From Candidatus Hydrogenedentota bacterium (lineage in GTDB: Bacteria; Hydrogenedentota; Hydrogenedentia; Hydrogenedentales; SLHB01), in contig JACQVH010000285.1 of assembly GCA_016209895.1 (NCBI GenBank), forward strand, positions 1-34,569: a stretch of DNA of 34,569 nucleotides. Direction: 5' to 3'. Both the position numbers and the translations under genes were made by a program. Below the pieces are notes generated by a model that worked only from the letters and a program-made list of their open reading frames with translations, ran no database searches and was not told where the DNA came from. Shown piece by piece: positions 8,748 through 27,300 of the stretch. The stretch's first letter is position 1. Each line of letters opens with the position of its first letter.

Positions 8748-8903
8748 AGCATACTGGGACCGGCCCGGGCGCCGCAAAAACGTTCAAAGCCGTAAACCTC
8801 TGCCGTAGACGTAGGGCAGAAGGCAGACCTTCTAGCCGGCCCTGTGATTGCCAAGAAAACAGTCGGTACTGTAAACCTTTTACTGGGGATACGCGTTTCA
8901 TCA

Positions 8904-9494: not shown

Positions 9495-9526
9495 GAGCTG
9501 CTGAATCATGAAGGAGCACTGAGACC

Positions 9527-10582
9527 ATGTGGGGATGTCGGAAAGCGCAAGGGCTAATCGCGGCTTCAATTTACGAGGCGCTGGATGACGGGGACCGGCG
9601 GCGGCTGGACAGACATCTGGCCAGTTGCCCGGCGTGCCGGGCGGAGGCGCAGGCGATGATTTCGGTCGCCCGTCGAATACCCGAAGCCCCGATTCCCGAA
9701 TTGCCGCGCAGTCTGATGCCGGCGATAAAGGCCCGCCTCGCCCAAAATGAGGTCCCAGTGCCTTTTGCCTGGCGGTACGCCGCCGCGGCCATGGCTACGG
9801 TGGTCGTGCTCGGCTCGGTCTCCTATGGGCTTCTATATTCAGGACTCTCCGGTTCCGGGGTGCAGAACCTAGCTGACAATCGCCCTGTCCAAGTAGATTC
9901 CGCACTGCAGCCGACGCTCGATCAGGCGGCAGCGCTCATGGAACAACGTCAGTACGCCGATGCGTACCGTGTCCTCGAAGCCGGACTACGAGTGCACTAC
10001 CGCGATGCCCGCGCGGGCGAAGGCCAGTTGCTCTTGGCGGACATCGCATTCACGCATTTGAAACAATATCCAGTGGCCTATTCCGCCTACCAGCGGGCGC
10101 AGCAGTTTTACTCCTCCGCGATCCTGGCCAGTCCGGACCGAAATACGATCCTGGAACGCTGGGAAACACTCGCAGAGGCGCGAAAAGTGGAATACGCCTC
10201 GCTCTATGCGCTGGACGCCGCGACGCGCGATCGGTCCGATACCTTCGCAAAGCTCGAGCAAGTCGTAGCCCGATATCCCGAAAAATACGTGGGGGCGATG
10301 GCCGCTGAGGAAATGGCGAAGCTGATGGTGGCCGCCGGGGCGGTCCAGGTGGGCGAACAAACACATTTTCTGGCCATGCAAGAAGCCAGCCTGCGGTGTA
10401 AAGACCCCATCGCAGCGACACGGCTGAAGCTTGAAATGGCGCATATCTACCGCGATGAGCTTAATAACCCGGAAAAGGCGCGCGAGTACTACGGGGAAAT
10501 CGCTGCCAATTCGAACGAGGTGTTGGCCCGACTTGCCCGGGAATCGCTTTCCAGCCTGGAAGCTGGGGCATCCCGCGAATAG
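9527..10582 (+). CDS. zinc-finger anti-sigma factor with TPR-like periplasmic domain
   Basis: A 351-residue protein. The N-terminus is a zf-HC2 (ZAS-type) anti-sigma domain with the H-x3-C-x2-C motif at His30, Cys34 and Cys37 (HLASCPAC) and an extra Cys4. A membrane segment follows at about residues 82-104 (YAAAAMATVVVLGSVSYGLL). From about residue 125 to the end the protein is helical with TPR-like units (ALMEQRQYADAYRVLEAGL, AFTHLKQYPVAYSAYQRAQ, MAHIYRDELNNPEKAREYY). The expected role is to hold the preceding ECF sigma factor inactive at the membrane; the periplasmic TPR part would be the sensor or partner-binding arm. GAAGGAG precedes the ATG. It is longer than most simple anti-sigma factors because of the TPR part. 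Confidence 0.85.
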   Translation: MWGCRKAQGLIAASIYEALDDGDRRRLDRHLASCPACRAEAQAMISVARRIPEAPIPELPRSLMPAIKARLAQNEVPVPFAWRYAAAAMATVVVLGSVSYGLLYSGLSGSGVQNLADNRPVQVDSALQPTLDQAAALMEQRQYADAYRVLEAGLRVHYRDARAGEGQLLLADIAFTHLKQYPVAYSAYQRAQQFYSSAILASPDRNTILERWETLAEARKVEYASLYALDAATRDRSDTFAKLEQVVARYPEKYVGAMAAEEMAKLMVAAGAVQVGEQTHFLAMQEASLRCKDPIAATRLKLEMAHIYRDELNNPEKAREYYGEIAANSNEVLARLARESLSSLEAGASRE

Positions 10583-10716: not shown

Positions 10717-12453
10717 ATGAAGAGCCCCTTCGAAAAACTGTTGGTTGCCGACGGCATCGTAGATGAAGCCATGTTGGCCCAATTGAGGTCGGAAGGGCCC
10801 AACGGCACCCCTCTACATGAAGTCCTGGTACGGCTAGGACATGCCTCGGCTGACAAGGTATACCGTTGTCTGGCCAAATTCTGTGAACTGCGGTTCGTCG
10901 TGCCGTCGAAAATGGACATTCCGGCCAACGTGGTAGCCAAAGTCCCAGCCCGATTTGCCACCCACTATCGGTTCGTCCCAATTGGCGAGAACAACGGCGC
11001 CCTGATGATCGCGGTGGGCGACCCTTTGAACTCGCAACTTCTCGACGATATCCGACTGGTTCTAAAGCGACGTATCGAGGTCGTAGTCGCGACTCCGGAT
11101 GAAATTGAGCGCGCCACCAAGGTCTTGTACGGCGTCGGCGCGGAAACGGTAGAACGTATTCTGAGCGAGACCGAGCCGAGCGCGGCCGCGCTCAATCTCG
11201 ACCTAACCGCCGGCACCAACCTGGCCGACGACAGCCTTGAAGCATCTATCATCAAGTTTGTAAATGAGCTCTTGGTGGAAGCCATTCGTTCAGCAGCGAC
11301 CGACGTTCACCTGGAACCGTTTGAGGACCAACTGCGGGTGCGCTATCGAATAGACGGGATTCTGCACCAGGCGCCCACGCCGCCGAACATCCGTGGTCTG
11401 CACGCTGCTATCGTCTCCCGCATCAAGATCATGGCGAATCTCAATATCGCCGAGCGTAGACTACCGCAGGATGGAAAGATTTTGGCTACTCTTGCCGACG
11501 GGCAGTATGACCTCCGCGTATCGGTCCTGCCCACTCCCCACGGCGAGACGGTCAATATTCGTATCCTGAGCCGATCCTCCATGTTTCTAACCCTCGAACA
11601 GCTCGGGATGCTTTCGGACGACCTCCAACTATTCAACACCTTCATCCACCGCCCGCACGGTATGATCCTGGTCACGGGTCCCACCGGCAGCGGCAAAACC
11701 ACGACCCTTTACGCGGCCTTGAGCAAGCTAAACAAGCTCGAACACAAAATTATCACCATTGAAGACCCGATCGAGTATCAACTCAAGGGGGTCACTCAGA
11801 TGCAAGTCCTTCCGCAGATCGGGTTCGACTTTTCGAATGCATTGCGGTCCATGCTGCGCCACGATCCGGATATCATGCTGGTCGGAGAAGTTCGGGATTA
11901 TGAGACGGCCGAGATGGCGATTCGTTCTAGTCTAACCGGGCACCTGGTATTCAGCACGCTGCACACGAACGACGCTGCGGGCTCCATTATACGGCTGACG
12001 GACATGGGCGTCGAGCCGTATCTGATCGCGAGCACGATGATCGCCGCCATTGCTCAACGGTTAGTGCGCGCAATCTGCGAGGAATGCGCCGAGGATTTCC
12101 AGCCAGAACCGGAACTCCTGCGGGAGTTTCATGCCACGACAGCGCAGGTGCGGGCGGCGCGGTTCCGGCGCGGTCGCGGGTGCGATGCCTGCAGAAACAC
12201 CGGATATCGCGGACGATTTGCAATCTATGAGTTCCTACCTTTCACCCATGCCGTCAAAGATTTGACCGTACGCCGCGCCCCTTCCACCGAGATCAAGCGC
12301 AAAGCCGTGGAAGGGGGTCTGAGGACCCTGCGCCAAGTCGGCTGGCAACGCGTGTGTGAAGGCAGGACCACTTTTGAAGAAGTGTTGCGAGTCACCGGAG
12401 ACGTGGACATCGCCGATCCAACCGAGGCGGGCAATGCCGCAGTTCCGGTATGA
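10717..12453 (+). CDS. gspE: type II secretion system ATPase GspE
   Basis: A 578-residue cytoplasmic secretion ATPase that powers pseudopilus assembly. An N-terminal T2SSE_N/MshEN-like domain (to about residue 145) precedes the ATPase core. Visible motifs are DVHLEPF, Walker A GPTGSGKTT (321-329), the Asp box (ITIEDPIEYQL), Walker B DPDIMLVGEVRD (about 383-394) and the His box (GHLVFSTLHTNDAA). Near the C-terminus a four-cysteine zinc site (CEECAEDF and CDACRNTGYRGR) marks the GspE/PilB type. The ATG at 10717 gives a full-length protein. It is first in the gsp cluster, and its 3' end overlaps the start of gspF by 20 nt. PilB of type IV pili is similar, but the surrounding gspG-D genes favour GspE. 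Confidence 0.93.
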   Translation: MKSPFEKLLVADGIVDEAMLAQLRSEGPNGTPLHEVLVRLGHASADKVYRCLAKFCELRFVVPSKMDIPANVVAKVPARFATHYRFVPIGENNGALMIAVGDPLNSQLLDDIRLVLKRRIEVVVATPDEIERATKVLYGVGAETVERILSETEPSAAALNLDLTAGTNLADDSLEASIIKFVNELLVEAIRSAATDVHLEPFEDQLRVRYRIDGILHQAPTPPNIRGLHAAIVSRIKIMANLNIAERRLPQDGKILATLADGQYDLRVSVLPTPHGETVNIRILSRSSMFLTLEQLGMLSDDLQLFNTFIHRPHGMILVTGPTGSGKTTTLYAALSKLNKLEHKIITIEDPIEYQLKGVTQMQVLPQIGFDFSNALRSMLRHDPDIMLVGEVRDYETAEMAIRSSLTGHLVFSTLHTNDAAGSIIRLTDMGVEPYLIASTMIAAIAQRLVRAICEECAEDFQPEPELLREFHATTAQVRAARFRRGRGCDACRNTGYRGRFAIYEFLPFTHAVKDLTVRRAPSTEIKRKAVEGGLRTLRQVGWQRVCEGRTTFEEVLRVTGDVDIADPTEAGNAAVPV

Positions 12454-13642
12454 AGTAAAGCGCGCGCCCGGTCAGTCTGCCAGCGGAGTCATCGAGGCCG
12501 AAAGCCAGCGAGCCGCAGTGGCCCGCCTCCGCGACTTGGGGTATATACCGGTTGCGGTCGAAGAGGATTCGGGCAAACCGGCGAGAACGCTCAAACACAC
12601 CCTGTCCCGGATACGCCTGAAAGACCGTAACGTCTTTTTGCGCCAGTTAGCCAATCTCTTCGAGTCCGGGATGCCCATCACGCGTGCGCTGGGCACACTG
12701 ATCCAACAGACTGAGAATCCCAAGCTGACCGTGGTCATCGAAGAAATCCGCGATGATGTGCAGCGCGGGAGCACGCTCGCCGAGGCGTTTGAACGCCATC
12801 CCAAGGTTTTTTCGGCAATCCACTGTAATTTGGTCCGTGCGGGCGAAGCGGGCGGCATGTTGGACGAGGTCTTCTGGCGGCTCGTAGCTTTCGGAGAACA
12901 AGAAGAAGAATTGCGCGGGAAAGCAGTATCGGCGCTGGTTTATCCGATTTTCCTTCTCATAATGGGCAGCATTTCAGTGTTCATACTGGTGTCCTTCGTG
13001 TTTCCCAAGTTTGTCGTGATCTTCAACGATTTCAACGCGCGGCTGCCTTGGCCTACTTTAGTTGTGATGGGGCTGTGCTCGTTTATGGGCCGCTTCTGGT
13101 GGGCGGTGCTGCTGGCGATCAGCTTGCTAGCGGCCGCCGGCGTTTCGTACCGGCGCAGCGATTCTGGCCGAAAGCAACTCGACCATCTGGTGTTGCGGCT
13201 GCCCGTCATCGGCAAAGTCATTCAGAAATACGAGATGGCTAAGTTCGCTCGGACGCTCGGCACTTTGCTGGACAACGGTGTGCCTATTCTGTCCGCGTTG
13301 CGGATCACCGAAGATACCCTGAACAATACCGCCATCGCCTCGGAACTTAACGCGGTTCAGGGGCGCGTGGCCGAAGGCGACAGCATCAGCGAGAGTCTGG
13401 ACGGAGCCGTCCATTTTCCGCCGCTCGTGGTCAACATGTTTGCCGTGGGTGAGGAAAGCGGACGCCTGGGCGCCATCACGAAACGGATTGCGGAAGCCTA
13501 CGATGCGGAAGTGGACCGTGCTGTGAAGGGCATGGCGGCCCTGTTCGAGCCGCTCATGATTGTAGTCATGGGCGCGATCATCGGCTTTTTGGTGATCGCG
13601 ATGCTGTTGCCGATGTTAACTTTAAGTGCCAATGTCTCATAA
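12434..13642 (+). CDS. gspF: type II secretion system inner-membrane platform protein GspF
   Basis: The ORF track starts at 12356, inside gspE; the ATG at 12434 (MPQFRYEVKRAPGQSASG) is the standard GspF beginning and has GAGG a few bases upstream, giving 402 residues, the usual length. Two T2SSF repeats are seen, each opening with a helical segment: FLRQLANLFESGMPITRALG (first) and KFARTLGTLLDNGVPILSAL (second). Membrane segments lie around ALVYPIFLLIMGSISVFILV, WWAVLLAISLLAAAG and the C-terminal MIVVMGAIIGFLVIAMLL. It couples the ATPase to the pseudopilus in the inner membrane. The gap to gspG (204 nt) is the longest inside the core cluster and carries palindromes. Confidence 0.93.
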   Translation: MPQFRYEVKRAPGQSASGVIEAESQRAAVARLRDLGYIPVAVEEDSGKPARTLKHTLSRIRLKDRNVFLRQLANLFESGMPITRALGTLIQQTENPKLTVVIEEIRDDVQRGSTLAEAFERHPKVFSAIHCNLVRAGEAGGMLDEVFWRLVAFGEQEEELRGKAVSALVYPIFLLIMGSISVFILVSFVFPKFVVIFNDFNARLPWPTLVVMGLCSFMGRFWWAVLLAISLLAAAGVSYRRSDSGRKQLDHLVLRLPVIGKVIQKYEMAKFARTLGTLLDNGVPILSALRITEDTLNNTAIASELNAVQGRVAEGDSISESLDGAVHFPPLVVNMFAVGEESGRLGAITKRIAEAYDAEVDRAVKGMAALFEPLMIVVMGAIIGFLVIAMLLPMLTLSANVS

Positions 13643-13648
13643 ATGTGA

Positions 13649-13665
13649 AGACGAGATTCTCGTCT
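13649..13665 (+). other. 17-bp palindrome just after gspF
   Basis: AGACGAGA and TCTCGTCT flank a single T, forming a perfect palindrome 7 nt after the gspF stop. CTCGG..CCGAG follows shortly after. It could be a DNA-binding site or part of an mRNA-processing hairpin separating gspEF from the pseudopilin genes; there is no T-run, so a classic terminator is unlikely. Confidence 0.4.
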
Positions 13666-13736
13666 GGACTCGGAACTCCCGAGCGGCGTGTCTCAACCAA
13701 CACGACATGTCTGCATACCAAAAACACCATCTAGGT

Positions 13737-13813
13737 GTCATTCTGAGCGCAGCGAAGAATCTCGCATACCGTGGACTTGGGCGTGAGAGATTCTTCGCCG
13801 CGCTCAGAACGAC
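13737..13813. repeat. 77-bp long palindromic repeat (TCATTCTGAG family), copy 1
   Basis: GTCATTCTGAGCGCAGCGAA and AGAATCTC at the left are mirrored by GAGAGATTCTTCG and CGCTCAGAACGAC at the right, giving an imperfect hairpin about 77 bp long. Two further copies lie at 23985-24070 and 24110-24187. The element sits between gspF and gspG, ending about 33 nt before the gspG ATG, and would fold strongly in the operon mRNA. Similar sequences are known as dispersed elements in several bacterial phyla (general recollection, not searched). Confidence 0.75.
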
Positions 13814-13846
13814 AGATGGAGGATCGCCCTCACGAAGGAGATACCG

Positions 13847-14248
13847 ATGAAAGACAACGCAGGTTTTACACTCATCGAATTAATCCTGGTGACGATCATT
13901 ATCGGGATTCTCGCCGGGATGGTCGTAATCAATGTGGCCGGCCGCGCGGAAGAGGCTCGAGTTCGACGCGCGCACGGCGATATCGCCACCTATCAGAATG
14001 CCATTGATCTCTACGCCCTGGACCACAATGACAAATATCCAAAATCGTTGAACGAATTAATGGGTGGGAAAAGAGATTACGTCCGCAAGCTGACCAAGGA
14101 CCCCTGGGGCAATGACTACGTGGTCGTGGTTCCGGGCAAGTACCGAAAGAACAGTTATGACTTGTACTCGCGTGGTCCGGACGGGATCGCGGGCAACGGC
14201 GACGATATAACCAGTTGGAGCGACCAAGCACCCGACGCGGCCTCGTAG
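13847..14248 (+). CDS. gspG: type II secretion system major pseudopilin GspG
   Basis: A 133-residue pseudopilin, the usual length. A short leader MKDNAG is followed by the prepilin-peptidase site G|FTLIE with Glu at mature position 5, then a hydrophobic helix (LILVTIIIGILAGMVVINV). The C-terminal part has YKYP-like DKYPKSLNEL, DPWGNDY and GPDGIAGNGDDI, the latter matching the calcium-binding loop of GspG. It would polymerise into the periplasmic pseudopilus that pushes substrates through the secretin. A good ribosome-binding site (GAAGGAG) precedes the ATG. A prepilin peptidase must be supplied from elsewhere. Confidence 0.95.
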   Translation: MKDNAGFTLIELILVTIIIGILAGMVVINVAGRAEEARVRRAHGDIATYQNAIDLYALDHNDKYPKSLNELMGGKRDYVRKLTKDPWGNDYVVVVPGKYRKNSYDLYSRGPDGIAGNGDDITSWSDQAPDAAS

Positions 14249-14285
14249 GATACATCCGACGCTGGCCCCGGCGGTTAGAAAAATC

Positions 14286-14786
14286 ATGCAGCCTTTCGAG
14301 CGACACGGCTTTTCCCTCCTTGAGCTAATCGTGGTACTGACGATACTCGCGGTCATGTCCGCGGCGGTAGTGCCCCTATATCGGAATTCGTTGATCCGCT
14401 CCCGCGGAAACGCCGCCCTCCAGGACCTGCTTGCCACCTTGAAGTACGCCCAGCAACGCGCGGTCACAGACACTCAAGAATATAGGGTCTACCTCAATCA
14501 CAAGACAGGTCATTACTGGGCGGCTCGCCCAGTCGTCACGAAAGAGGAGGAAATAAGCTTCGAGACCTTGGGCGAGCCGGGCACGGAGCCCGTGAAACTC
14601 CCGGAAGGCGTCAAGATGAGCCAGCCCAAGGCGCGAAAGGATCGGGACCAGGAAGCGTACTACATTAGCTTCTATCCCAGCGGCGCGTGCGACGTAGCAA
14701 CGGTCGCATTGGACTATGAGGACGGCAAGACGGTGCGAGTCCAAACAAAGGGAAAGATCGGACCCTTCGAGGTGAAAGAGCTGTGA
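14286..14786 (+). CDS. gspH: type II secretion system minor pseudopilin GspH
   Basis: A 166-residue pseudopilin with leader MQPFERHG and cleavage site G|FSLLE, Glu at position 5, and hydrophobic helix LIVVLTILAVMSAAVVPLY. The following QDLLATLKYAQQRAVTDTQEYRVYL matches the GspH/FimT pattern of a long helix leading to a beta domain, and FYPSGACDVATVAL resembles the family's C-terminal strands. It lies 37 nt after gspG and overlaps gspI by four bases (GTGA), so the two are translationally coupled. FimT-like minor pilins are similar, but the gene order supports GspH. Confidence 0.85.
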   Translation: MQPFERHGFSLLELIVVLTILAVMSAAVVPLYRNSLIRSRGNAALQDLLATLKYAQQRAVTDTQEYRVYLNHKTGHYWAARPVVTKEEEISFETLGEPGTEPVKLPEGVKMSQPKARKDRDQEAYYISFYPSGACDVATVALDYEDGKTVRVQTKGKIGPFEVKEL

Positions 14787-15256
14787 GGCGGCCGACCACG
14801 ATACGAGGGTATATCCTGGTAGAGGCGATGGTGGCCATGGTCGTGCTCAGTCTCGGCATCTTGGCATTACGCAGCGCGCAGCAGCAGACAACCCTGGCCC
14901 GTGGTCAGGCTCGGGACTATACGCAGGCCCGATTTCTTCTCGAACGACTCATAGCCGAACTTGAAATACTGCCAATCTTACGGGAAGGGGCAAGTTCGGG
15001 CGTGTTTGAAGGCGATTTCTCACGCTTCCGTTGGTCTCGAACGGTATCCAGAGTAAGCCTTCCGGGAATGGAGCCACCAGTACAACTCTTGCCGGGAATG
15101 ATGGTGCAGGCCCCGGACGCTTTTGTCGGAAAAATCACTGCCACGGTTTTCTGGACCCGCAGCGGTCAGGAATTTCAAGAGACGGTCGAAACCTTGGTTG
15201 CTCCCGCGAAACTTCCACAGGCGGAAAATGAGATCACACTCTCCCCTACATCCTAA
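14783..15256 (+). CDS. gspI: type II secretion system minor pseudopilin GspI
   Basis: A 157-residue pseudopilin starting at GTG 14783 in a four-base overlap with gspH. The N-terminus reads RG|YILVEAMVAMVVLSLGILA: Glu5 is present, but mature residue 1 is Tyr instead of the usual Phe. The LEAMVA-like segment and the following ALRSAQQQTTLARGQARD fit GspI. GspI is expected to form the pseudopilus tip with GspJ and GspK. Its 3' end overlaps gspJ by 29 nt. Confidence 0.82.
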   Translation: MRRPTTIRGYILVEAMVAMVVLSLGILALRSAQQQTTLARGQARDYTQARFLLERLIAELEILPILREGASSGVFEGDFSRFRWSRTVSRVSLPGMEPPVQLLPGMMVQAPDAFVGKITATVFWTRSGQEFQETVETLVAPAKLPQAENEITLSPTS

Positions 15257-15998
15257 CGGTGGATTTACGCTCGCTGAACTTATCGTAGCGAGTGCCGTTC
15301 TGGCGCTGGTCATGGGCGGAGTTTACACGGGCTTCAGTGCGTCCGTGCGCACTTGGCGCATCGGCGAAGCGGACCTGGCCGTGTATCAAGACGCCCGACT
15401 AACCTTGGGAATCGTGGCCCGGGAACTGCAATGTGTATTGCCGCAGACGGCGCACCTGTTCGAAGGCGAAGACGATGAAATCCAGTTCTACGCCCTGACC
15501 GCCCCAATGAACCTCGAAGATGGTTCTGATCCGCGAATCCTACGCATTCGGTATCGTCTCAAGCCCGATCCCAATGGCCGTGGATCGGTGTTGCTTCGTG
15601 AAGAAGCGCCCATCGAGAGTCCTCTCCCCCCGCCGCCGGTCAAGGGTCAAGAATTGGATACGAGTATTATCGAAGAAGGTCGAGAACAGTCCTTCGAATT
15701 GGTCGCCGGCGTCGAGGCCTTCGACGTGGAATATCTCTGGGCACCGTCGCCAGAACCCGGAGTTTCCACCATGTCACCATTTTCTCTGGCCCAGCCGCCC
15801 GTCATTACCATGACCGAGAATCCGATCAGGTCAGGATTGCCCCAAGGGCTGAATATCAGACTTGCCCTCTACGAGCCGAGCGCCGAAGCCGGAGTGACCA
15901 GTTATTCTACCCACCTCGTGTTCCGCGGCCCGACGACGCCGTATGACGAAGGAGAATCCGAGGCTACTTCTCCAACCCTGGGAGCCGGCGGCGTATGA
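15228..15998 (+). CDS. gspJ: type II secretion system minor pseudopilin GspJ
   Basis: The ORF begins at 15123 inside gspI, but the ATG at 15228 gives a proper pseudopilin leader (MRSHSPLHPNGG) ending in G|FTLAE with Glu5 and the helix LIVASAVLALVMGGVYTGF. The resulting length is 256 residues. The body contains YQDARLTLGIVARELQCVLP, like the conserved region after the GspJ helix, and a Pro-rich loop (PLPPPPVKG). It overlaps gspI at the 5' end and gspK by four bases (ATGA) at the 3' end. It should bind GspI and GspK at the pseudopilus tip. Confidence 0.85.
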   Translation: MRSHSPLHPNGGFTLAELIVASAVLALVMGGVYTGFSASVRTWRIGEADLAVYQDARLTLGIVARELQCVLPQTAHLFEGEDDEIQFYALTAPMNLEDGSDPRILRIRYRLKPDPNGRGSVLLREEAPIESPLPPPPVKGQELDTSIIEEGREQSFELVAGVEAFDVEYLWAPSPEPGVSTMSPFSLAQPPVITMTENPIRSGLPQGLNIRLALYEPSAEAGVTSYSTHLVFRGPTTPYDEGESEATSPTLGAGGV

Positions 15999-16936
15999 GA
16001 AACTCATCTCAGGGCTTTGCGCTCGTGTGTGTCTTGTGGGTCTTGGCTATTTTGACGGTCATTACCATCAGCTACGGCCATCGCGCGATGCTCGATCGCC
16101 GGGCTGCAGCCTATTCCTTGGACTATCTCCAGGCCATGCAGATGGCGCGGGGCGCGGTCGAACGAGGGATCGTGGCCATGCGCCACAAAGCATCTGTGGA
16201 TGCCGCGGCAAGAGCGTCGCGACGCTCGACGCGGGAACCGTGGCGATTCGACACTGTGGACCTCCTCGCCGAAAGGCGATTCTACTCGTTGAGCGGCGGC
16301 CAAGAATTGGAGGGGGAAGAATGCACGTACCGCCTTCGTGACGAGGAACGTCGCATTTCGCTCAACAAGAGTCCCAAAGAAGTACTGGATGAAATTGATG
16401 ACCTGAGTTTCACGGTCGTGAATGAAATCATAGACCGGCGTCGCGAGGGAACGATCTCGGGGCGACCGTCCCTCTTCGTAGCCGTGGAAGAGTTGCTCAA
16501 CTTGGACGACGTAAGCGAGTCTACGTGGTACGGCGACGAGTCGCGTCCGGGTCTGCGCGACCTGTTGACGCCGTGGGGCGACGGCCGCATCAATCTTAAT
16601 ACCGCCTCCGCGGACGTGTTGCGATGCATCCCGAATGTTCGCGGTGATCTCGTGGACGAAATCGTCGCGTACCGGGCCGGGCCGGATGGAAAACCGGATA
16701 CGGCGGACGATCAGGTGTTCAGTAGTCTTGGGGAAATCTCAGGCGTGGTCAATGCCAGCGCGGATGATATGAAGCAGTTGGAACCTTATTGCAAGCTGGA
16801 TTCGCAGTTCTTTACAATCACCGGCACGGCCACGCAACGGCAGAAGCGTGTGCGCGCAATCTGTTCAGCATTGGTACGGATCGAGGCGGAAAACTTCGAG
16901 GTGCTCCAATGGCGGGAGGGGGATTTTGGCTCGTAA
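15995..16936 (+). CDS. gspK: type II secretion system minor pseudopilin GspK
   Basis: A 313-residue large minor pseudopilin. Leader MRNSSQG is followed by G|FALVCVLWVLAILTVITIS, which lacks Glu5 as is normal for GspK, the tip subunit that caps the pseudopilus. The large alpha-helical insertion is seen in RRISLNKSPKEVLDEIDD and the helix-hairpin-helix-like INLNTASADVLRCIPNV, both typical of GspK. The start ATG overlaps the gspJ stop (ATGA). Confidence 0.9.
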   Translation: MRNSSQGFALVCVLWVLAILTVITISYGHRAMLDRRAAAYSLDYLQAMQMARGAVERGIVAMRHKASVDAAARASRRSTREPWRFDTVDLLAERRFYSLSGGQELEGEECTYRLRDEERRISLNKSPKEVLDEIDDLSFTVVNEIIDRRREGTISGRPSLFVAVEELLNLDDVSESTWYGDESRPGLRDLLTPWGDGRINLNTASADVLRCIPNVRGDLVDEIVAYRAGPDGKPDTADDQVFSSLGEISGVVNASADDMKQLEPYCKLDSQFFTITGTATQRQKRVRAICSALVRIEAENFEVLQWREGDFGS

Positions 16937-18482
16937 ATCAGGAAACATCAGCATCCTGCAGATTGGCGAGCATCTCATCTCCCGGCTGCGGGTCCGTCCC
17001 AGCCTGCGTGGAGTGGAGGTACTCGACTTCGCGCAAGAACGCGGTACCTGGGCGCTCCAGGACGGCTCCCTACAATCCGCGCTAACGGCGTTCGCCCACC
17101 AGCATCGCCTCGTCGAAGATGCGGTATATGTGGTGCTCCCTCGTCATGAAGTAGCCGCCCGCATTGTTACGTTTCCTTCCCATGACCTGACTGAAATCAA
17201 AGGAATGGTCCGCCTCAGCGCGGAAGAGTACGTGCCGTATCCGGCGGAAGAGTTGGTTATAGACGAATGCATCTTGGAGAAACTGCACGGCGGCGAGGCG
17301 CGTGTTCTTGTGGTGCTGGCGCACCGCGACGTCGTCGAGGGTTACGTCCGGCTTCTGCGGCAAGCCGGGTTGGAGCCCCAGGAAATCCTGGTGAGCACCG
17401 CCTGCCTTGCGTCCGCCATGGCCGCGACCGGTGTGCTCAGGAAGGACGCTATTCCGCCGCAACAGACCGATGTCTCTCTCGTCGTGCCTGCCGCCCGGGA
17501 AACTGAACCGAGACGAGCCGCGCTGGTACATCTCTTACCGGGGGGTATCGAGATTCTGATCTTTCGCGGCAACCATTTGGAGGCGGTACGAGGCGTCGCG
17601 AACGCTCAAGATTGGATGCGCGACAGCATTCAGTCCGCAGCAGCTATAGGCGAACTCGCAAGTGAAGTGCGTGGGGCCTTGGCGTCTTTCCGCCGCGAAT
17701 TAGAAGAAAGCACCACAATCGAGTCGCTACTGGTGAGTTCTGACGTCGCGGACGCGACTGAATGGGCCAAGGCCCTCGAGCCGGAGGCCGGGCTATTATG
17801 CTCGTCCGTTCCGGCCATGGGTACTCTCGTAACCCGCGGCCAGGAGCACTTGGCCAACGCTCAGCCGTTGGCGCTGCTGGGGGCCGCCTGCGTAGCTCAA
17901 GCCCGCGCGGCCGTACCGATCAGCCTCGTGCCGGAATCGGTGCTCCACGCTCGCCAACGGCTCGCCCTGCGGCGAATCGCGCGGCGCGGCGCTCTGCTGG
18001 TCGGAGCGGTGCTTGTCGCGTGGTTTGGACTGTTCTTTCAGGCGGTAGCCAAACGAGCGCACTACGCACACGAATTGGAAGACCGCCATCACAGCATCGC
18101 GCAGGACGCGCGAGGCGTAGCCGAAAAGCACCGGCAATTGCAGGCTATCTCGCGTCAGGTGGACCGTAAAGGGACCGCCGTCGAGCTCTTGGCACGACTC
18201 TGCGAAGTGGCCCCCTCCTCCGGTTTGAACATCACGCGCGTCGTGTTTGTGCGCGGGCAGGGCGTGACCGTCGAAGGGCGCGCATTGGACGTGTCCGCGG
18301 TAGATCAATTCGCGGAGAACCTGCGGCAGTCCGGTCGTGAACGGGTGCCGCAATTCGCTCAGGCCCGTACGATCAGCACCCAAGGCCAGACCGAGCAGAA
18401 TCAAGGCGTCACCCAATTCGAAATCAGCGTTCCATTTCCGCAAATCGAGGAGTCCGAACAAGCCGAGGCCGCGGTTGAATAA
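16926..18482 (+). CDS. gspL: GspL-like T2SS assembly protein with PilM-like and PilN-like parts
   Basis: The ORF opens at 16848, but TTG at 16926 has a strong ribosome-binding site (GGGAGGGGG) 4-5 nt upstream and reads LARKSGNISILQIGEHLISR, a good start for the actin-like cytoplasmic domain; the product is 518 residues. The first ~350 residues resemble PilM/GspL (VYVVLPRHEVAARIVTFP, then AEEYVPYPAEELVIDE). A single membrane segment (ALLVGAVLVAWFGLFFQAV) precedes a coiled coil and a PilN-like periplasmic part (LARLCEVAPSSGLNITRVVF). So cytoplasmic actin-like and periplasmic ferredoxin-like parts are in one chain, as in GspL. It should bind GspE and GspM. It overlaps gspK by 11 nt and the next gene by 8. 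Confidence 0.8.
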   Translation: MARKSGNISILQIGEHLISRLRVRPSLRGVEVLDFAQERGTWALQDGSLQSALTAFAHQHRLVEDAVYVVLPRHEVAARIVTFPSHDLTEIKGMVRLSAEEYVPYPAEELVIDECILEKLHGGEARVLVVLAHRDVVEGYVRLLRQAGLEPQEILVSTACLASAMAATGVLRKDAIPPQQTDVSLVVPAARETEPRRAALVHLLPGGIEILIFRGNHLEAVRGVANAQDWMRDSIQSAAAIGELASEVRGALASFRRELEESTTIESLLVSSDVADATEWAKALEPEAGLLCSSVPAMGTLVTRGQEHLANAQPLALLGAACVAQARAAVPISLVPESVLHARQRLALRRIARRGALLVGAVLVAWFGLFFQAVAKRAHYAHELEDRHHSIAQDARGVAEKHRQLQAISRQVDRKGTAVELLARLCEVAPSSGLNITRVVFVRGQGVTVEGRALDVSAVDQFAENLRQSGRERVPQFAQARTISTQGQTEQNQGVTQFEISVPFPQIEESEQAEAAVE

Positions 18483-19572
18483 TTGGTGGAAAAAACTCTC
18501 TAGCCGGGAGCGCAACCTTGCGTTCGCTACGCTGGTGGTCGCCATAGCTTCCGTTTTGTACTTTGCCGTCTCCTGGGCATGGGATACCGTACGGGATTTA
18601 GACGCACGCATTGACCGATTACAACAAGACGTTCTGAACTCGGTATATGAGGCTGCCCTCCGATATAGCGTCGAGACTGCGTACGTCGAAATTGCGGCGC
18701 AGCATTCCAGTAAGTGGACGCAAGAGGAAATCCATGATCGGTTGCGCCAGGAAATCTACCGGCTTGCCCAAAAGAACCCGCCGCATCCGGGCAGTAAAGA
18801 GGCCCTGGCGGGGACGACCAATCCCCAGTGGCTGCTGGAAATCCGCTCCCTCGGCGAAGGAAAGCTGGAGGACAGTGGGAGGGGTTATCGCGAGTACAAG
18901 ATTGGCTTCAAGACTCTACCTACGGATATTCAATCGGTTATCTTGTATCTATCGCGATTGCAGCAGAGTCCGCAATTGTTGCGCATTGACAATCTGGAGA
19001 TCGTTAGGCCGGTTCCGGAAACGCCGGGCGTGATAGCGACCATCGAAGTAACCCGTACCGTGGTGGATAGCGCCATCGAGGGAGTGTCCGAAACCCCCAC
19101 GATATCCCCAATACTAGCCGGCGCCGGCAATTTGAGTCGAAACCCGGGATTCGAAGAATGGGACCGCCTCCAAGGTAAGTTCCCCCAATGGGATTCCGCA
19201 AGCTGCCGGTTGCTCGAGGACACGGAACATGCAACTGAAGGGTCGGCTTGCGTGCGCGTCGAGACGGCCGGCGACGGGGCGGCGTTCTACCAGCAACAGG
19301 AACTCGTGGCCGGGAACGTCTATGAATTGACGATGGATATTACGGCATCCGCACCTATGCGGCTGGCAGTAATGAATGACCGCGAGAAAGCGATTCTGCC
19401 GGAAACTCAGGACATAGTCGGAGACGGTCTCCCGCGGCAGTATTACTGTGAGCTTCGTGTCCCTGGAACGCCCGGCACCAAAGCAAGTCTCCGTGTTCCA
19501 TGTATCATCATGTCCCAACAAGGCTCCGTGGCATACGTAGACAATGTACTCTTGATGGAACGCAAGAACTAG
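18475..19572 (+). CDS. GspM/PilO-like T2SS protein fused to a CBM4/9-like domain
   Basis: The ORF begins at 18337 inside gspL; TTG at 18475 (reading LNNWWKKLSSRERNLAFA) with GAGG upstream is the likely start, giving 365 residues. Residues to about 45 fit the GspM N-terminus: a short WWKKLSSRER cytoplasmic part and one membrane helix (FATLVVAIASVLYFAVSWAW). A coiled coil and a PilO/GspM-like domain (KIGFKTLPTDIQSVILYLSRL, LLRIDNLEIVRPV) run to about residue 200. From residue ~219 a second domain begins with NLSRNPGFEEWD and ends AYVDNVLLMERKN, with SACVRVET and VYELTMDITASAP between, the classic layout of a CBM4/9-type jelly roll. I know of no standard GspM with such a module. Confidence 0.75.
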   Translation: MNNWWKKLSSRERNLAFATLVVAIASVLYFAVSWAWDTVRDLDARIDRLQQDVLNSVYEAALRYSVETAYVEIAAQHSSKWTQEEIHDRLRQEIYRLAQKNPPHPGSKEALAGTTNPQWLLEIRSLGEGKLEDSGRGYREYKIGFKTLPTDIQSVILYLSRLQQSPQLLRIDNLEIVRPVPETPGVIATIEVTRTVVDSAIEGVSETPTISPILAGAGNLSRNPGFEEWDRLQGKFPQWDSASCRLLEDTEHATEGSACVRVETAGDGAAFYQQQELVAGNVYELTMDITASAPMRLAVMNDREKAILPETQDIVGDGLPRQYYCELRVPGTPGTKASLRVPCIIMSQQGSVAYVDNVLLMERKN

Positions 19573-19574
19573 GA

Positions 19575-20063
19575 ATGATAAGAATCCTTTTCACGTTCGG
19601 TTGGTGCGCTTTGGCAGTGGCGGTTGCGCTGCTGATCCTCGGCGTTTTCACGGATCCAGTTAGAGACCAGCGCGTGTGGCTTGAGACCGAGCTGACCAAC
19701 GTGGCGCCACCGGCTATCACTTTCGACACGGCTCCGGACGTGGACTCGACCGCGCTTCAACGGACCATTACCGGCAAAGCCAATCTTTGGCGCGGCCTCG
19801 TAGCGCCACCCAAACAGGCGGCTACAGCCCCGAATTTCGGTAACGAAATGGCGGGGGTGGTGATTACGCGAGACCAGATCGGTACGGGAGACCAGGTTCA
19901 GGTACGGGTGCGGGTGGGTAACGACACGCGGGGTCAGTGGATGGGTAAGGGCGCTGTCGTCAAAGGATGGACAATTGTTGAAATCTTACCGCGTGAAGTG
20001 AAGTTCTCGAAAACGCAGAATGGTACCGAGTATACTGGCGTTCTTCCGCGAGGGAACAGATGA
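19575..20063 (+). CDS. gspC: GspC-like T2SS inner-membrane protein
   Basis: ATG at 19575, two bases after the previous stop, gives 162 residues (the ORF at 19500 starts inside the preceding gene). Residues 1-22 form a membrane anchor (ILFTFGWCALAVAVALLILGVF). A linker follows, and the last ~65 residues (VVITRDQIGTGDQVQVRVRV, then KGWTIVEILPREVKFSKTQN) resemble the homology-region (HR) domain of GspC, which contacts the secretin N0 domain. The usual PDZ or coiled-coil C-terminus of longer GspC proteins is missing. PilP-like proteins are also similar, so the label rests partly on its position just before gspD. Confidence 0.65.
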   Translation: MIRILFTFGWCALAVAVALLILGVFTDPVRDQRVWLETELTNVAPPAITFDTAPDVDSTALQRTITGKANLWRGLVAPPKQAATAPNFGNEMAGVVITRDQIGTGDQVQVRVRVGNDTRGQWMGKGAVVKGWTIVEILPREVKFSKTQNGTEYTGVLPRGNR

Positions 20064-20179: not shown

Positions 20180-22543
20180 ATGAAGCCATCTTTTAACACC
20201 ATTCTGCACGGAATCGTATTCGCCTTCTTGCCTTCTGTTCTCGCCGTAGCGCAATTACAGTCGCCGACGAGTCCGGCACCCGAAACTGACGTAACCGGCC
20301 TCGCGGAGCAAGCCTTTCGTGGTGGCACCGCAACACAGCGTTATCCCGGACGCAAAGGTGCGACCGCACCGACTCCGAAGACCGGCACGCCTGAGCGCGA
20401 GCGACCTCGTTCGACCGTGCGAACCATTCAGCCGGGTACGAGCGGCCCGGTGCATACCACGGGCCAAGGCGCATTTGAGCCGGTCCTGAATAACAAAATC
20501 GAGTACGGCGACATCCCGGAAATGGGCGAGCTAATTTCCCTCGCCGCCACCGATCAGCCCATTAAAGTCCCCCAGTTACTGGATACCTTGGCCGTAGCGA
20601 CGAATTGGAACATTGTGGCCTCGGAAACACTCGAGAACAAGAGTGTTCGCTTCTGGATCAATCAAGTTACCGCGAAGCAAGCCCTCGATGTTCTCCGATT
20701 CAACGGCATCTATTACGAATTCATCCCGGAGACTAAATTCCTCTACGTGATGACGCAGGAGGAATATTTACGGCAAGAGCACGGCGCCATTGAACATTCG
20801 GAATTCGCAATCAAGCACGCCGAGGTGGCGGACATGGAAGCCATCCTCACTTCGTTGCTCTCGTCTTCCGGCCGGATCATCTCCGATCCGCGCACGGGGC
20901 GCATTCTGGTCTGGGACACCGAGGCGAACCTGAAAGCGATGCAAGAGGCCGTCGTTCGGCTCGACGTGCAACTTGAGCCGCGCGTATTCGCCCTAAAATT
21001 CGTGTCCGCCGAGAGTTTGCTCGAGAGCATCAGCAGCCTCCTGACGGAACGCGGTCTGGCGCAAGCGGACCCTCGCACCAACACGCTGGTCATCAGCGAT
21101 CTGCCTTCACGTCTCGACCAAATTGCCGCGGTCTTGGAGGCACTGGACAAGAAGGTGGAAACGAAGACCTGGACCCTCAGCTACGCCGACCCCAAGAGTA
21201 TAGTGGAACGCCTGGAGAATATCGTTCCGGAAGAAATGGGCATCGTAACAGTGGATGAAGATACACACCAAGTCAGCGCCACTGCGATCCCCGAGCGATT
21301 GACGGAGATTGACGAGTTAATCAAAGCCTGGGACAAGAAGCGAAAACAGGTCGAGATTGAAGCCTACTTGGTGGCGGCTTCAACCGAGATTACGCGAAAC
21401 CTGGGTGTTGACTGGTCCTACTTTGATCAACATTCCGGCGGTCCCTTTGCCATCCAGAGCGGTCCCAACGTGCCCGATTACTCGGCGATACCGGAAAGCG
21501 GGCAGCGTTTGACCATCGGGACGTTGCCGTTCCAGGTCCCGTTGCGAAATCCGCTCACGAGCGCGCCAATTCTGGATATCAATGGAAACGCGATACCGGA
21601 TGATGAATTCCGTGGGAACCGTATTTCGGTCGTGCTCAACTACCTGGATTCCAAAGGCGATGTGACGATTCTTTCACGCCCGCGTGTAACCGTCATGGAC
21701 GGTGAAGAAGCCAACTTCCAAAACACCGAAGACCGGCCGTATCAAGAGGGCGGCTATTCGCAGTTCACGGGCACCAGCGTGCTTGATCCCAGTTTCAACC
21801 GGGTCATCCCGCTGCGCGTGCAGTTTATCAAGGTGGGCACCATTCTCAAAGTCACCCCGTTGATCGGCGAGGAAGCGAATATCCAAATGAAAATCTCTGC
21901 GGAAGACAGTACGGCCGAGAACGTAACCGTCACCGTTGGCGACCAGAGGAGCACCATTCCACAGAAGCGCGAGAATAAGACCGAAACCCAGGTGCTGGTG
22001 CACGACGGACAAACGTTGGTGATCGGCGGCTTGCGCTCCGCCACCATCGAGGATCAAGTGCAGAAGGTTCCGTTCCTGGGCGACGTACCGTTCCTGGGCC
22101 GCTTATTCAAAAACACCGAAAAAGACCATCGGCACCGGGAGTTGCTCATCTTCATTACGCCGACATTGGTGGATGAGTACACGCGTCCCGAAGCCGAGCG
22201 CCTGGCCGACTTGGAAGGGACCGTCTCCGAGACTCTGCGTCACTCTCAGAAACCTATGCTCGAGCGGATGGAAAGCCGACTCTCCCGAGGACGAAACGAA
22301 ATCGGCGTCTCCATCGGCGAGAGCGGGAGCATCCATTCCAAGGGGAACCTAGTGACTCTGGAAGACTTGGAAAAAGTGTTCGGCGAGGTCCAATCCTCCC
22401 CCAAGACCACTGCGGTCGTGATCCGCAAACATCCCAATGCGCCCGAAAATGTGAGCGCGACCATCGCGGAACTAGCCAAAACGGCGGGGTTGGAAGTCGA
22501 ATTCGACGAGAAGATGGTACCCTTTGTTCCCGCCTCGCCATAG
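20180..22543 (+). CDS. gspD: type II secretion system secretin GspD with C-terminal ExbD/TolR-like domain
   Basis: A 787-residue outer-membrane secretin, with AAGGA before the ATG. A signal peptide (1-24, ending FLPSVLAVA) is followed by a Thr/Pro-rich linker to ~105. An N0-like domain comes next (SLAATDQPIKVPQLLDTLAV, about 120-195), then N1-N3 modules with the repeated IISDPRTGRILVWD / QADPRTNTLVISDLP pattern (about 205-400). The secretin core follows (VEIEAYLVAASTEITRNLGV to VQKVPFLGDVPFLGRLFKNT, then ELLIFITPTLV, about 395-670). The last ~82 residues (706-787) are not a standard S domain: IGVSIGESGSIHSKGNLVTL, DLEKVF, AVVIRKHPNAP and LAKTAGLEVEFDEK match the fold pattern of ExbD/TolR periplasmic domains. 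It forms the outer-membrane channel. Confidence 0.93.
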   Translation: MKPSFNTILHGIVFAFLPSVLAVAQLQSPTSPAPETDVTGLAEQAFRGGTATQRYPGRKGATAPTPKTGTPERERPRSTVRTIQPGTSGPVHTTGQGAFEPVLNNKIEYGDIPEMGELISLAATDQPIKVPQLLDTLAVATNWNIVASETLENKSVRFWINQVTAKQALDVLRFNGIYYEFIPETKFLYVMTQEEYLRQEHGAIEHSEFAIKHAEVADMEAILTSLLSSSGRIISDPRTGRILVWDTEANLKAMQEAVVRLDVQLEPRVFALKFVSAESLLESISSLLTERGLAQADPRTNTLVISDLPSRLDQIAAVLEALDKKVETKTWTLSYADPKSIVERLENIVPEEMGIVTVDEDTHQVSATAIPERLTEIDELIKAWDKKRKQVEIEAYLVAASTEITRNLGVDWSYFDQHSGGPFAIQSGPNVPDYSAIPESGQRLTIGTLPFQVPLRNPLTSAPILDINGNAIPDDEFRGNRISVVLNYLDSKGDVTILSRPRVTVMDGEEANFQNTEDRPYQEGGYSQFTGTSVLDPSFNRVIPLRVQFIKVGTILKVTPLIGEEANIQMKISAEDSTAENVTVTVGDQRSTIPQKRENKTETQVLVHDGQTLVIGGLRSATIEDQVQKVPFLGDVPFLGRLFKNTEKDHRHRELLIFITPTLVDEYTRPEAERLADLEGTVSETLRHSQKPMLERMESRLSRGRNEIGVSIGESGSIHSKGNLVTLEDLEKVFGEVQSSPKTTAVVIRKHPNAPENVSATIAELAKTAGLEVEFDEKMVPFVPASP

Positions 22544-22549
22544 CCCGAA

Positions 22550-23008
22550 ATGCCCGTCCCGGTCCGTAAGATAGTCTCCGGCGGCCAAACCGGTGTAGAC
22601 CGTGCGGCACTGGACGTGGCCCTGGACGTAAACATACCCTGTGGCGGCTGGTGTCCCCAAGGCCGCCTTGCTGAAGACGGCGTCATCCCCGCGCAATATC
22701 CACTTCGAGAAACTCCTTCTTCTGATTATGCCGAACGAACGGCCTGGAATGTCCGCGATTCGGACGGGACATTGATCTTGACCTGGGGACCACCCACGGA
22801 AGGCACGGCCTTCACTATCGCAATCGCGGAGCAACTCGGAAAACCAGATTTGACCGTGGACCTCTACGAAACTTCAGATACGGAACCGATCGAGCAATGG
22901 ATTCGCCAAAACTCCGTCCGAACACTTAATGTCGCCGGACCCCGCGCCAGCAAATGCCCCGACATCTACGAACACGCGGCGGAACTACTGCGGCGCTTGC
23001 TCGCCTAA
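22550..23008 (+). CDS. SLOG-superfamily putative molybdenum carrier-like protein
   Basis: A 152-residue protein beginning KIVSGGQTGVDRAALDVAL, then GGWCPQGRLAEDG and IPAQYPLRETPSSDYAERT. These motifs are the hallmark of the family annotated as putative molybdenum carrier (cpSLOG, a circularly permuted YpsA/SLOG Rossmann fold). SGGQTG and WCPQGR would form the nucleotide- or ligand-binding pocket. The C-terminus LNVAGPRASKCPDIYEHA fits the same family. The actual ligand is unproven. It starts only 6 nt after gspD, so it is probably read from the same transcript, which is an odd neighbour for a secretion operon. A strong hairpin follows the stop by 11 nt. Confidence 0.85.
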   Translation: MPVPVRKIVSGGQTGVDRAALDVALDVNIPCGGWCPQGRLAEDGVIPAQYPLRETPSSDYAERTAWNVRDSDGTLILTWGPPTEGTAFTIAIAEQLGKPDLTVDLYETSDTEPIEQWIRQNSVRTLNVAGPRASKCPDIYEHAAELLRRLLA

Positions 23009-24339: not shown

Positions 24340-27300
24340 ATGGCGGGACGCACGGCAGTAGCGACACGGGGTATAATAGTGTTGGTGACGGTCATGACGT
24401 TGGGAATTCAGCGCGCAAGTAGCGGGGCAGCGAGGCCGACCGGCTACGATGCCGTAGCGCCGGACTGGCAGGAGCGGCCGGCGGAGGCGACCTACTACGG
24501 CTGGCGCGGAGTGCGAACACCGCTGTATCTATCCTCCGGACGCGTCGGCATCACGTTCGAGCCGGGAGTCACAGCGGACGCGATGCGCAGCGCCCTGACT
24601 ACCGCGCCGACCTTGAACGCGGGCACGGTCACATTGGACTTCGAACGGTTGGACTATGCCCGTACCTTCGTGGTGGACACCGCGGCGGGAACGCCGACGG
24701 AATCCATCACCGGTATCGTGCAAGCGCTGCGCGCCTTGCCCGGCGTCGAGTCCGTGAACCCGGTATTTGAGACCTCACCCGGCAAAGAGTCGTTGCTTAC
24801 CGATTATCTCTACATCAACGTTTCCTCAGCGACGCCCGAATCGCAAGTGCAGAGCCTGATCACGGCCAAGCGTCTGGAAGTCTTCAAGCGCAACGACTAC
24901 AGCGAGATCGGCATTATCGGCTACCGGCTCAAAGTCCCCAAAGCCACGCGCGCCGCCACGGGCAAGCACGCCCTGGACCTCGCCAATGAGCTGCAAAGCG
25001 ACCCACTCGTTCTGGAATCGGCGCCGACCTTCGCGCCGCTGTACAATCTTTTCACCGACATAGTCCCGAATGATCCGGTCTATCCGGCACCCAATCAATA
25101 TCCCGAAGACCTGGGTGCGCGCGTTGGTCAGTGGCACCTTCCGCGCATTAGGGCGGAGCAGGCCTGGGGTCTCGTCTATGGCCAAACCGGGCTCTATTAC
25201 TGGCCCGCATGTGGGAGCACTTCTCCTATTGAAAACGACCCGCCTTCGTGTGACCCGCCAGCCGGCACACCCCGGATCGTTGTTGCCGGGCTGGACGACG
25301 GCGTTTCGCTGGATTACATCACTGCGTCGCGGACCTACAACGGTCAGTCGTACACCATTCCGGGACCCGGTCCCGGCCCCGATAATGGTCTCTATATTCT
25401 GGATAACTCGAAGAACGAGAACTTGCTCGGTCACGTGGACTTGAATTCGAATCAATGGTTGAACTTGGTGGAAATTCAGGGCACGTTGAATGCTGATGAC
25501 GATGGCAATGGAAAGGATGACGATTACTTCGGCTGGGACTTTGTCGGGAAAGACCCCTTTGTTGATACCGAAGACGACCGTATACCATTCCCGGATTTTC
25601 AGAGCAATCCGATCCTGGCCACGAGCCGTGGTCACGGCAATGGAACTATCTCTCGGGCTGCCGCGCGCGGCCACAATTACAAGGGCGTTGCCGGAGTGTG
25701 TTGGAGCGCCCGAATCATGCCGATACGCTACCACATTAACACGGCATCTAACGACAACACCCGGAGTTACGATGTGTATTATGCCGGGCGCGGTGAGGAC
25801 GCAATTAACTACGCCGTAGACACCGGTGCAGACGTGCTCTCGATCATGATGCCTCTGGACGTTTACGATCCGGGTATTTACAACGCCGTCAAGAGCGCGC
25901 GAAAGGCGGGCCGGGTGATCGCGGTACCCGCGGGCAACGACAGTTGGTCCATGGATGCGTATCCCATCTATCCGGCCGTATGGCCGGAAGTGATTGCGGT
26001 GGGGGCTTCGACCAAGGTTGAAGACCCGGAAAGACGCAGCAGCTATTCCAGCTATGGCTGGGCGCTCGACGTGGTAGCTCCATCGAGCGACGCGTTAACG
26101 CTCAACAACCACGCGGGCGCCTCCATGGGCCGCCAAGTGTTTGACGACCAGGGGAACCTGCTCTATACTGATCCTCCCGCTGAACCATACCACCGCTACG
26201 GAGCCGGGGGCGGGACATCTTCCTCGACGCCCACCACAGCAGGCTTGGCCGCCTTAGTATTGACCGTGAATCCTGACCTCTGCCCCGCCGAGGTTCAGGC
26301 CATCTTGCAATGGTCAGCCCATGATTTCGTATACACCTATGGTAGCGAGGAAGCGGCGGCCGGTCGAGATTATTACACAGGTTGGGGCCGGCTGGATGCC
26401 GAGCAGGCAGTTTTACTGACTCAGAAAGCCCGGTTTGCCTTCAAGAATCCAGAAGGTCGCACCGTAATGTCCTGGGACGAGGACGGTCGATTCGTTATGG
26501 ATGGAGTGCTGAAACAGAACGCCACCCCGGCCGAACTGACGCCGCTCGACACCGTCGGTGAGTTCATTCTTAAGAACGCTGTGGGAACGGTGGTTGCGCG
26601 GTTGGACCCGACTTGGACGAGCCCCTATCAGGGCGGCGCGTACCATCCCGCGACTTTATACCTCAATGGACGCATTCAAACCACTTGGCAACCTCCAAAT
26701 CCGGGGGTGGCGGCGTTCAAGATCAATAACCCCACCGGAACCACGGTCGCCTATATTGATGCGGCTGGGAACATGTACCTGAACCTACAACAGAAGTTTA
26801 TAACCGCGAGTGCGGACGCCAACGGGACCTACACGGTGAACGCACCGTTGGGTAGCGAAGGTATTGTCGATTTTGCATACGACAATGGGAACGGCCTGCA
26901 GACGGCTATTACGGCGGTACCTGTCCACAGCATCATCATCGTGTTTCCCGGACCAAACAACCAGCCTTATAATCCGATCGGTTTTGATGGCAAGAATGTG
27001 GTGGTCCGTTCAAGCAATCCCTATGACGCGACCACCGTGGCAAACACGATCATCCAGGGAACCGCTTCGGCACGCTGCGTAACGTTTGCTGGGACGGAGA
27101 CGACGGACTGTGCCTTGATCGGCTTTACGATCAAGGGTGGACATCAGTCTATCGGAGCCGGAATCCTGGGATCGTACAATCCGAGTCCGATCAATGGCAC
27201 CAAGGCCCGTATTGAGAACAATGCGATCTACGGCAATGTCGCGACACTGTGGGGCGGGGCCATCGCCTATTGTCATGGGGTGATAGCGTATAACGTGATC

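What the first reader, a model, noticed from the sequence alone, without database searches (positions are those of the whole stretch)
22295..22540. Secretin GspD carries a C-terminal ExbD/TolR-like domain
After a complete secretin core (ending ELLIFITPTLV), about 82 extra residues read IGVSIGESGSIHSKGNLVTL, DLEKVF, AVVIRKHPNAP, AGLEVEFDEK. This is the strand-helix-strand layout of the periplasmic domain of ExbD/TolR. In TolR this domain can bind peptidoglycan. It takes the place of the pilotin-binding S domain, so it may anchor or open the secretin in the cell wall without a pilotin, or couple it to a Tol/Exb-like motor. I know of no described secretin with this module.
Basis: partly seen in the sequence, partly recalled or inferred. 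Interest (0 to 1): 0.72.

Follow-up and report, generated by a model that had tools for sequence, protein, structure and literature searches.

The report
Secretin with built-in ExbD/TolR-like domain
The outer-membrane pore protein (GspD) of a type II secretion system in an uncultured bacterial phylum ends in an extra domain that is truly related to the cell-wall-touching part of the ExbD/TolR motor proteins, so it probably ties the pore to the cell wall from an unexpected end; the relationship is solid, the anchoring job is an inference.

Summary
The 787-aa secretin (20180-22543, + strand), last gene of a T2SS operon, ends in a ~70-residue domain (residues 706-777) homologous to the periplasmic domain of ExbD/TolR. 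Pfam alone is sub-threshold on this protein (14.9 bits, cut-off 25.4), but every stronger test agrees: 36 of 50 orthologues hit ExbD (best 1e-6); hhalign against 30 true ExbDs gives 97% (150 column-shuffled controls at most 5%); AlphaFold2 gives the ExbD strand/helix order, mostly at pLDDT >90; the five best Foldseek matches in the PDB are all ExbD (TM 0.61-0.78). The domain is in 58 of 68 genomes of the phylum (Hydrogenedentota) and in every orthologue whose C-terminus is intact, but in no secretin among ~700 other genomes searched. I found no description of it. The ExbD dimer interface has been rebuilt, reminiscent of the truncated TolR that binds peptidoglycan, and relatives pair the domain with SPOR or LysM wall-binding domains. 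Best reading: a built-in peptidoglycan anchor. Binding is untested.

The parts
20180..22543 (+). gspD-type secretin ORF, 787 aa, last gene of a T2SS operon
   Evidence: Pfam Secretin E 5.6e-45 and Secretin_N x3; NCBIfam PilQ/GspD/SctC models match below their cut-offs; Foldseek top hits are GspD secretins
21644..22174 (+). Secretin (beta-barrel) domain, residues 489-665
   Evidence: Pfam PF00263
22187..22282 (+). S-domain-like helical linker, helices about 670-690 and 693-701
   Evidence: AF2 DSSP H341-361 and H364-372 of the segment starting at residue 330; profile alignment enters the PulD S domain
22295..22510 (+). ExbD/TolR-like periplasmic domain, residues 706-777 (b-b-b-a-b-a-b)
   Evidence: Pfam, hhalign, AF2, Foldseek
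22424..22444 (+). Signature R-x-H-P-x-A-P (residues 749-755), where ExbD has R-A-D; H in 46 of 50 at the position of the invariant ExbD Asp
   Evidence: column counts
22493..22510 (+). Last strand (beta6 position), residues 772-777: charged (55% DEKR over 50 sequences) where ExbD is hydrophobic (10%)
22520..22531 (+). Conserved P-[FI]-V-P tail, residues 781-784
   Evidence: P 48/50, V 44/50, P 44/50
10717..20063 (+). T2SS operon upstream: gspE (10717), gspF (12356), gspG (13847), three more N-methyl pseudopilins (14286, 14783, 15123), gspK-like (15995), PilM/PilN = gspL-like (16848), gspM-like (18337), gspC-like (19500; by position and anatomy, no Pfam hit)
   Evidence: Pfam scans

Best explanation
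This is a type II secretion system secretin (GspD) that has gained, behind its barrel and its S-domain-like helices, a soluble copy of the ExbD/TolR periplasmic domain without the transmembrane helix (shown by sequence profile and predicted fold). In the ring (15-fold in known GspD) the copies would hang around the outside of the barrel on its periplasmic side, within reach of the peptidoglycan (inferred from secretin topology). There each copy most likely binds glycan strands of the wall, as TolR(60-133) and the ExbD periplasmic domain can, fixing and perhaps locally ordering the mesh around the pore (inferred). The ExbD dimer interface (aromatic residue, hydrophobic last strand, N-terminal swapped strand) has been lost or made charged, so the domain should stay in the binding-competent form instead of being switched by a motor (inferred from residue counts). 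It would do the job done elsewhere by N-terminal AMIN domains (PilQ), an N-terminal SPOR domain (LspD), TsaP, or GspA/GspB.
For: Homology: 36/50 orthologues match Pfam ExbD; hhalign Prob 96.9-97.7 vs at most 5.2 in 150 shuffles, 1.3 reversed, 6.0 for the protein's own N3 domain; a profile of the secretin domain finds true ExbD genes in its own and many other phyla down to E about 2e-9. Fold: AF2 domain mostly pLDDT >90, ExbD element order; top five PDB matches are ExbD, Foldseek prob 1.00, TolR 5by4 rank 11; the longer model hits GspD first and ExbD next. Conservation: 58/68 genomes, every orthologue with an intact C-terminus. Wall link: three secretins of one genus add a C-terminal SPOR domain over the Pfam cut-off (24.9-26.7 vs 21 bits) and a relative's GH3 enzyme joins a like domain to four LysM repeats. 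Literature: truncated TolR binds sacculi, the full-length domain does not (PMC4646322); ExbD binds glycan chains transiently with opening of the dimer interface (PMC10771500). Interface rebuilt: aromatic in 28/30 ExbD vs 2/50 here, last strand 10% vs 55% charged.
Against: No binding experiment. ExbD's invariant Asp is His here and the R-x-H-P-x-A-P surface is distinctive, so the ligand may differ from that of ExbD/TolR. ExbD's binding to the wall is weak and transient. The SPOR fusion is seen in one genus only and the LysM fusion in one genome. S-domain-like helices remain, which might place the domain close to the outer membrane. A short last strand is still predicted, so the match to TolR(60-133), which lacks it, is only partial.
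Confidence: 0.55

Rival explanations
1. [quoted passage not shown]
For: It sits where pilotin-dependent secretins carry the pilotin-binding helix; no known pilotin family is found in the genome while the E. coli control is found. ExbD itself binds a peptide by strand addition (PMC10771500). The domain is kept in every intact orthologue, as a structural part would be.
Against: S-domain-like helices remain. The last strand, which ExbD uses for both peptide binding and dimerisation, is charged here. Known pilotin families are poorly defined outside Proteobacteria, so absence says little.
Confidence: 0.25
2. The domain couples the pore to an energised Tol/Exb/Ton-like motor (ExbB/TolQ with TonB/TolA), so that the proton-motive force acts on the secretin.
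For: Homology to the motor-linked ExbD/TolR domain; ExbD genes exist in all 70 genomes searched.
Against: No transmembrane helix in the unit (maximum Kyte-Doolittle 0.53 vs 2.4 in a true ExbD), exbD genes on other contigs, dimer and peptide-binding residues not conserved, no Tol/Ton gene among the window genes scanned.
Confidence: 0.07
3. The likeness to ExbD is convergence on a common small alpha/beta fold, not homology, and the domain is an unrelated C-terminal cap.
For: Pfam on this one protein is below the curated cut-off; identity to ExbD structures is only 14-15%; the profile finds PDB ExbD sequences only at E about 0.8.
Against: Profile-profile score, reciprocal finding of true ExbD genes, and specificity of the structural hits (ExbD ranks 1-5 of 350,542 chains) all speak for homology.
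Confidence: 0.03

Closest known systems
T2SS secretin GspD (PulD, EpsD, ExeD, XcpQ)
   Same: Secretin and Secretin_N domains, T2SS operon, S-domain-like helices after the barrel
   Different: Carries an additional C-terminal ExbD/TolR-like domain; NCBIfam GspD model matched only below its cut-off
ExbD/TolR (PF02472), periplasmic domain
   Same: Sequence profile and fold of the periplasmic domain
   Different: No transmembrane helix; invariant ExbD Asp of the periplasmic domain replaced by His; dimer-interface aromatic and hydrophobic last strand lost
Legionella LspD, T2SS secretin with SPOR domain (PMC9239104)
   Same: A wall-binding domain built into a T2SS secretin
   Different: SPOR, at the N-terminus before N0; here an ExbD/TolR-like domain at the C-terminus
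PilQ with AMIN domains / TsaP LysM (PMC9239104)
   Same: Secretin pore tied to peptidoglycan
   Different: AMIN is N-terminal, TsaP is a separate protein; other folds
GspA/GspB (OutB) scaffold (PMC9239104)
   Same: Role: anchoring the secretin to the wall
   Different: Separate inner-membrane proteins; no T2SSB match above the cut-off in this genome, search inconclusive

Membership tests
T2SS GspD secretin | Secretin plus Secretin_N domains | tested here: met
   Pfam E 5.6e-45 and 5.2e-32; PDB GspD chains E about 1e-43
T2SS GspD secretin | Gene context of a T2SS operon (E, F, G, K, L, M, C) | tested here: met
   C by position and anatomy only
T2SS GspD secretin | Score over the NCBIfam TIGR02517 equivalog cut-off | tested here: not met
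   221.8 vs 351.35 bits; the PilQ model scores higher, also below its cut-off. The claim 'T2SS secretin' rests on the operon, not on this model
T2SS GspD secretin | Pilotin-binding S domain with pilotin partner (only in pilotin-dependent members) | tested here: inconclusive
   S-like helices predicted, no PF09691/PF16549 pilotin in genome
ExbD/TolR (PF02472) | Periplasmic b-b-b-a-b-a-b domain homologous to ExbD | tested here: met
ExbD/TolR (PF02472) | N-terminal transmembrane helix that sits in the ExbB/TolQ pore | tested here: not met
   profile match begins at position 52-53 of 128; no hydrophobic segment in residues 665-787
ExbD/TolR (PF02472) | Dimer interface (aromatic at Tyr112/Tyr117 position, hydrophobic last strand) | tested here: not met
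   2/50 aromatic; 55% charged strand
Peptidoglycan-binding modules | Binds sacculi or glycan fragments | not testable with these tools
   needs a pull-down; only indirect evidence (PMC4646322, PMC10771500)

The most novel reading that the evidence does not exclude
A whole phylum has taken the motor-driven ExbD/TolR periplasmic domain, stripped it of its membrane helix and its dimer switch, and turned it into a permanent C-terminal wall anchor of the secretin ring; the same domain also serves as a portable wall-binding module in other envelope proteins (GH3-LysM enzyme, TPR protein), i.e. a so far unrecognised family of free-standing ExbD-like peptidoglycan-binding domains.
Probability: 0.4. 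Interest if true: 0.7.

Novelty: new variant of a known kind. Interest (0 to 1): 0.56.

Why it matters
How secretins cross and hold on to the cell wall is known mostly for Proteobacteria and a few pili, and it varies. A secretin-borne anchor at the C-terminus would be a further, self-contained solution and one that can be tested with a fragment of about 85 residues. It also shows the ExbD/TolR periplasmic domain, known as part of proton-driven motors, occurring as a separate module, and it offers a natural test of the idea that the TolR core binds the wall once its swapped strands are out of the way.

Tried and rejected
Single-sequence phmmer of the C-terminus against the PDB gave no informative hit, and the A1 profile against PDB sequences gave ExbD only at E about 0.8; the evidence comes from profile-profile and fold comparison. 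The genome-contig scan with the whole protein returned one locus only. Long open frames outside the phylum that matched the domain profile were read and are not secretins: unknown 553-aa protein with C-terminal ExbD domain (L116), 827/821-aa envelope-like proteins (L117, L118), IF2 (L119, chance), polysaccharide synthesis protein (L120, chance), ordinary exbD with upstream open frame (L122, L123, L127, L128), TPR protein (L126). The closest secretin outside the phylum that was read (L124, 34% identity) ends soon after the core, without the domain. GspB search inconclusive: sub-threshold hits here and in 10 of 14 control genomes. The idea that the domain is another secretin N-type domain was rejected (hhalign vs N3 Prob 0.4).

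Full report
What was checked. The ORF 20180..22543 (+) encodes a 787-aa secretin. Pfam finds Secretin (489-665) and three Secretin_N domains; ExbD appears at residues 706-772, profile positions 53-119 of 128, E 0.028 and 14.9 bits against a cut-off of 25.4. The ORF ends a T2SS operon: GspE, GspF, GspG and further pseudopilins, GspK-, GspL-, GspM-like proteins, a GspC-like protein by anatomy, then GspD.

Orthologues. The whole protein finds orthologues in most genomes of the same family and order; alignments run to residues 783-787, i.e. through the extra domain. One orthologue lies on a named contig, Candidatus Hydrogenedentota bacterium SLHB01000458.1, and its two secretin C-termini are identical to those of G005, a genome of the same family as the window's; hence the phylum. 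All 50 distinct secretin C-termini collected (window included) carry the domain. With a profile of these (A1), 58 of 68 genomes of the phylum match. Of the ten without, G001, G002, G011, G015, G019 and G023 show only distant secretins, no orthologue of this one, G040 and G045 have fragments that stop before the domain, and G050 and G057 show no orthologue. No orthologue with an intact C-terminus lacks the domain. Mean column identity of the C-terminal alignment is 46%, of the longer secretin alignment 48%.

Homology to ExbD. Scanned singly, 36 of 50 members match Pfam ExbD with E <= 0.1, best 1e-6; no other family recurs in more than three. Thirty true ExbD proteins of the same phylum were aligned (A2). 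hhalign A1 vs A2: Prob 96.9, E 1.7e-10, 65 columns; domain alone vs ExbD periplasmic part: Prob 97.7, score 63.7. Controls: 150 column-shuffled versions give at most Prob 5.2 and score 17.8, the reversed profile 1.3, the linker alone 0.3, the secretin's own N3 domain 6.0. In reverse, the A1 profile finds ordinary exbD genes (open frames mostly of 130-180 aa) in its own phylum (several are the same places as) and in many other phyla, down to E about 2e-9.

Fold. AlphaFold2 on A1 gives strands 43-48, 54-56, 59-61, helix 63-72, strand 81-86, helix 92-104, strand 108-111 (add 664 for protein numbering), pLDDT above 90 over most of the domain. Foldseek against 350,542 PDB chains: ranks 1-5 are all ExbD periplasmic domain structures (prob 1.00; TM by target 0.61-0.78), NMR ExbD rank 9, TolR 5by4 rank 11; the other hits near them are ribosomal proteins at lower probability and TM about 0.3. 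A second model (residues 330-787) gives the same domain behind two helices, and its PDB hits are GspD/PilQ/InvG secretins first and ExbD next. The profile of this longer stretch aligns about 18 residues into the S domain of PulD. The domain is therefore appended to S-domain-like helices; only the place of the last, pilotin-binding helix (alpha-12 in PMC6532946) is plausibly taken.

What changed relative to ExbD. Column counts: R749-x-H-P-x-A-P755 stands where ExbD has R-A-D; the position of the invariant Asp (30/30) is His in 46/50. The aromatic residue after it (28/30 in ExbD; Tyr112 of ExbD and Tyr117 of TolR lie in the dimer interface, PMC10771500 and PMC4646322, matched to this column by me) is aromatic in 2/50. 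The last strand is 55% charged (ExbD 10%; acidic 40% vs 0%). There is no transmembrane helix. TolR's full periplasmic domain does not bind sacculi but the core without its swapped N- and C-terminal strands does; ExbD binds glycan chains with reorganisation of its dimer interface. The secretin domain resembles the core form. This step is inference.

Wall-linked company. Three secretins of one genus (L010, L011, L020) carry a SPOR domain over Pfam's cut-off behind the ExbD-like domain, and a GH3 enzyme of a relative (L121) joins an ExbD-like domain to four LysM repeats. SPOR and LysM are wall-binding domains (established knowledge). PMC9239104 states that among T2SS secretins only LspD of Legionella is known to have a specialised PG-binding domain, an N-terminal SPOR.

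Distribution outside. About 318 genomes of other phyla and 392 of one other phylum (a few shared) gave ExbD genes and a few other proteins with the domain, but no secretin with it; the longest matching open frames were read. These searches scored only the best candidates per genome, so rare cases may be missed.

Literature. No paper found mentions a secretin with an ExbD-like domain or describes the T2SS of Hydrogenedentota; most subscription papers are not held, so this is not proof of novelty.

Verdict. Homology and architecture: shown by computation (about 0.97). Appended behind S-like helices: likely. Peptidoglycan anchor: most likely function, 0.55. Motor coupling: unlikely.

Noticed in passing
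L010, L011, L020 (secretin C-termini): Secretins of one genus (G004, G020, G024) carry a SPOR domain behind the ExbD-like domain, joined by a long Pro/Ala/Glu-rich stretch.
   Followed up: partly
L121:1661-4900 (-): 1080-aa protein: GH3 glycosidase, ExbD-like domain (Pfam 22.2 bits, sub-threshold), four LysM repeats.
   Followed up: partly
L126 (G428:C192), L117/L118, L116: ExbD-like domains without an ExbD membrane helix in a TPR protein, in 820-aa envelope-like proteins with an I-H-P-R-A-P-Y motif, and at the C-terminus of a 553-aa protein (37.7 bits, over the cut-off) in other phyla.
   Followed up: partly
L036:2021-7177 (+): Two secretin genes in tandem, both with the ExbD-like domain; same in G005.
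   Followed up: no
window 22520-22531: Conserved P-[FI]-V-P tail just behind the domain in nearly all orthologues; role unknown.
   Followed up: no
window 8844-10582: ECF-type sigma factor and a zinc-finger (zf-HC2, anti-sigma-like) protein directly upstream of gspE.
   Followed up: no
window 24340-28161: 1273-aa protein with an S8 subtilase domain downstream of gspD, a possible substrate of the T2SS.
   Followed up: no
window 22550-23008: Circularly permuted YpsA-type SLOG protein (cpYpsA) starts a few bases behind gspD.
   Followed up: no
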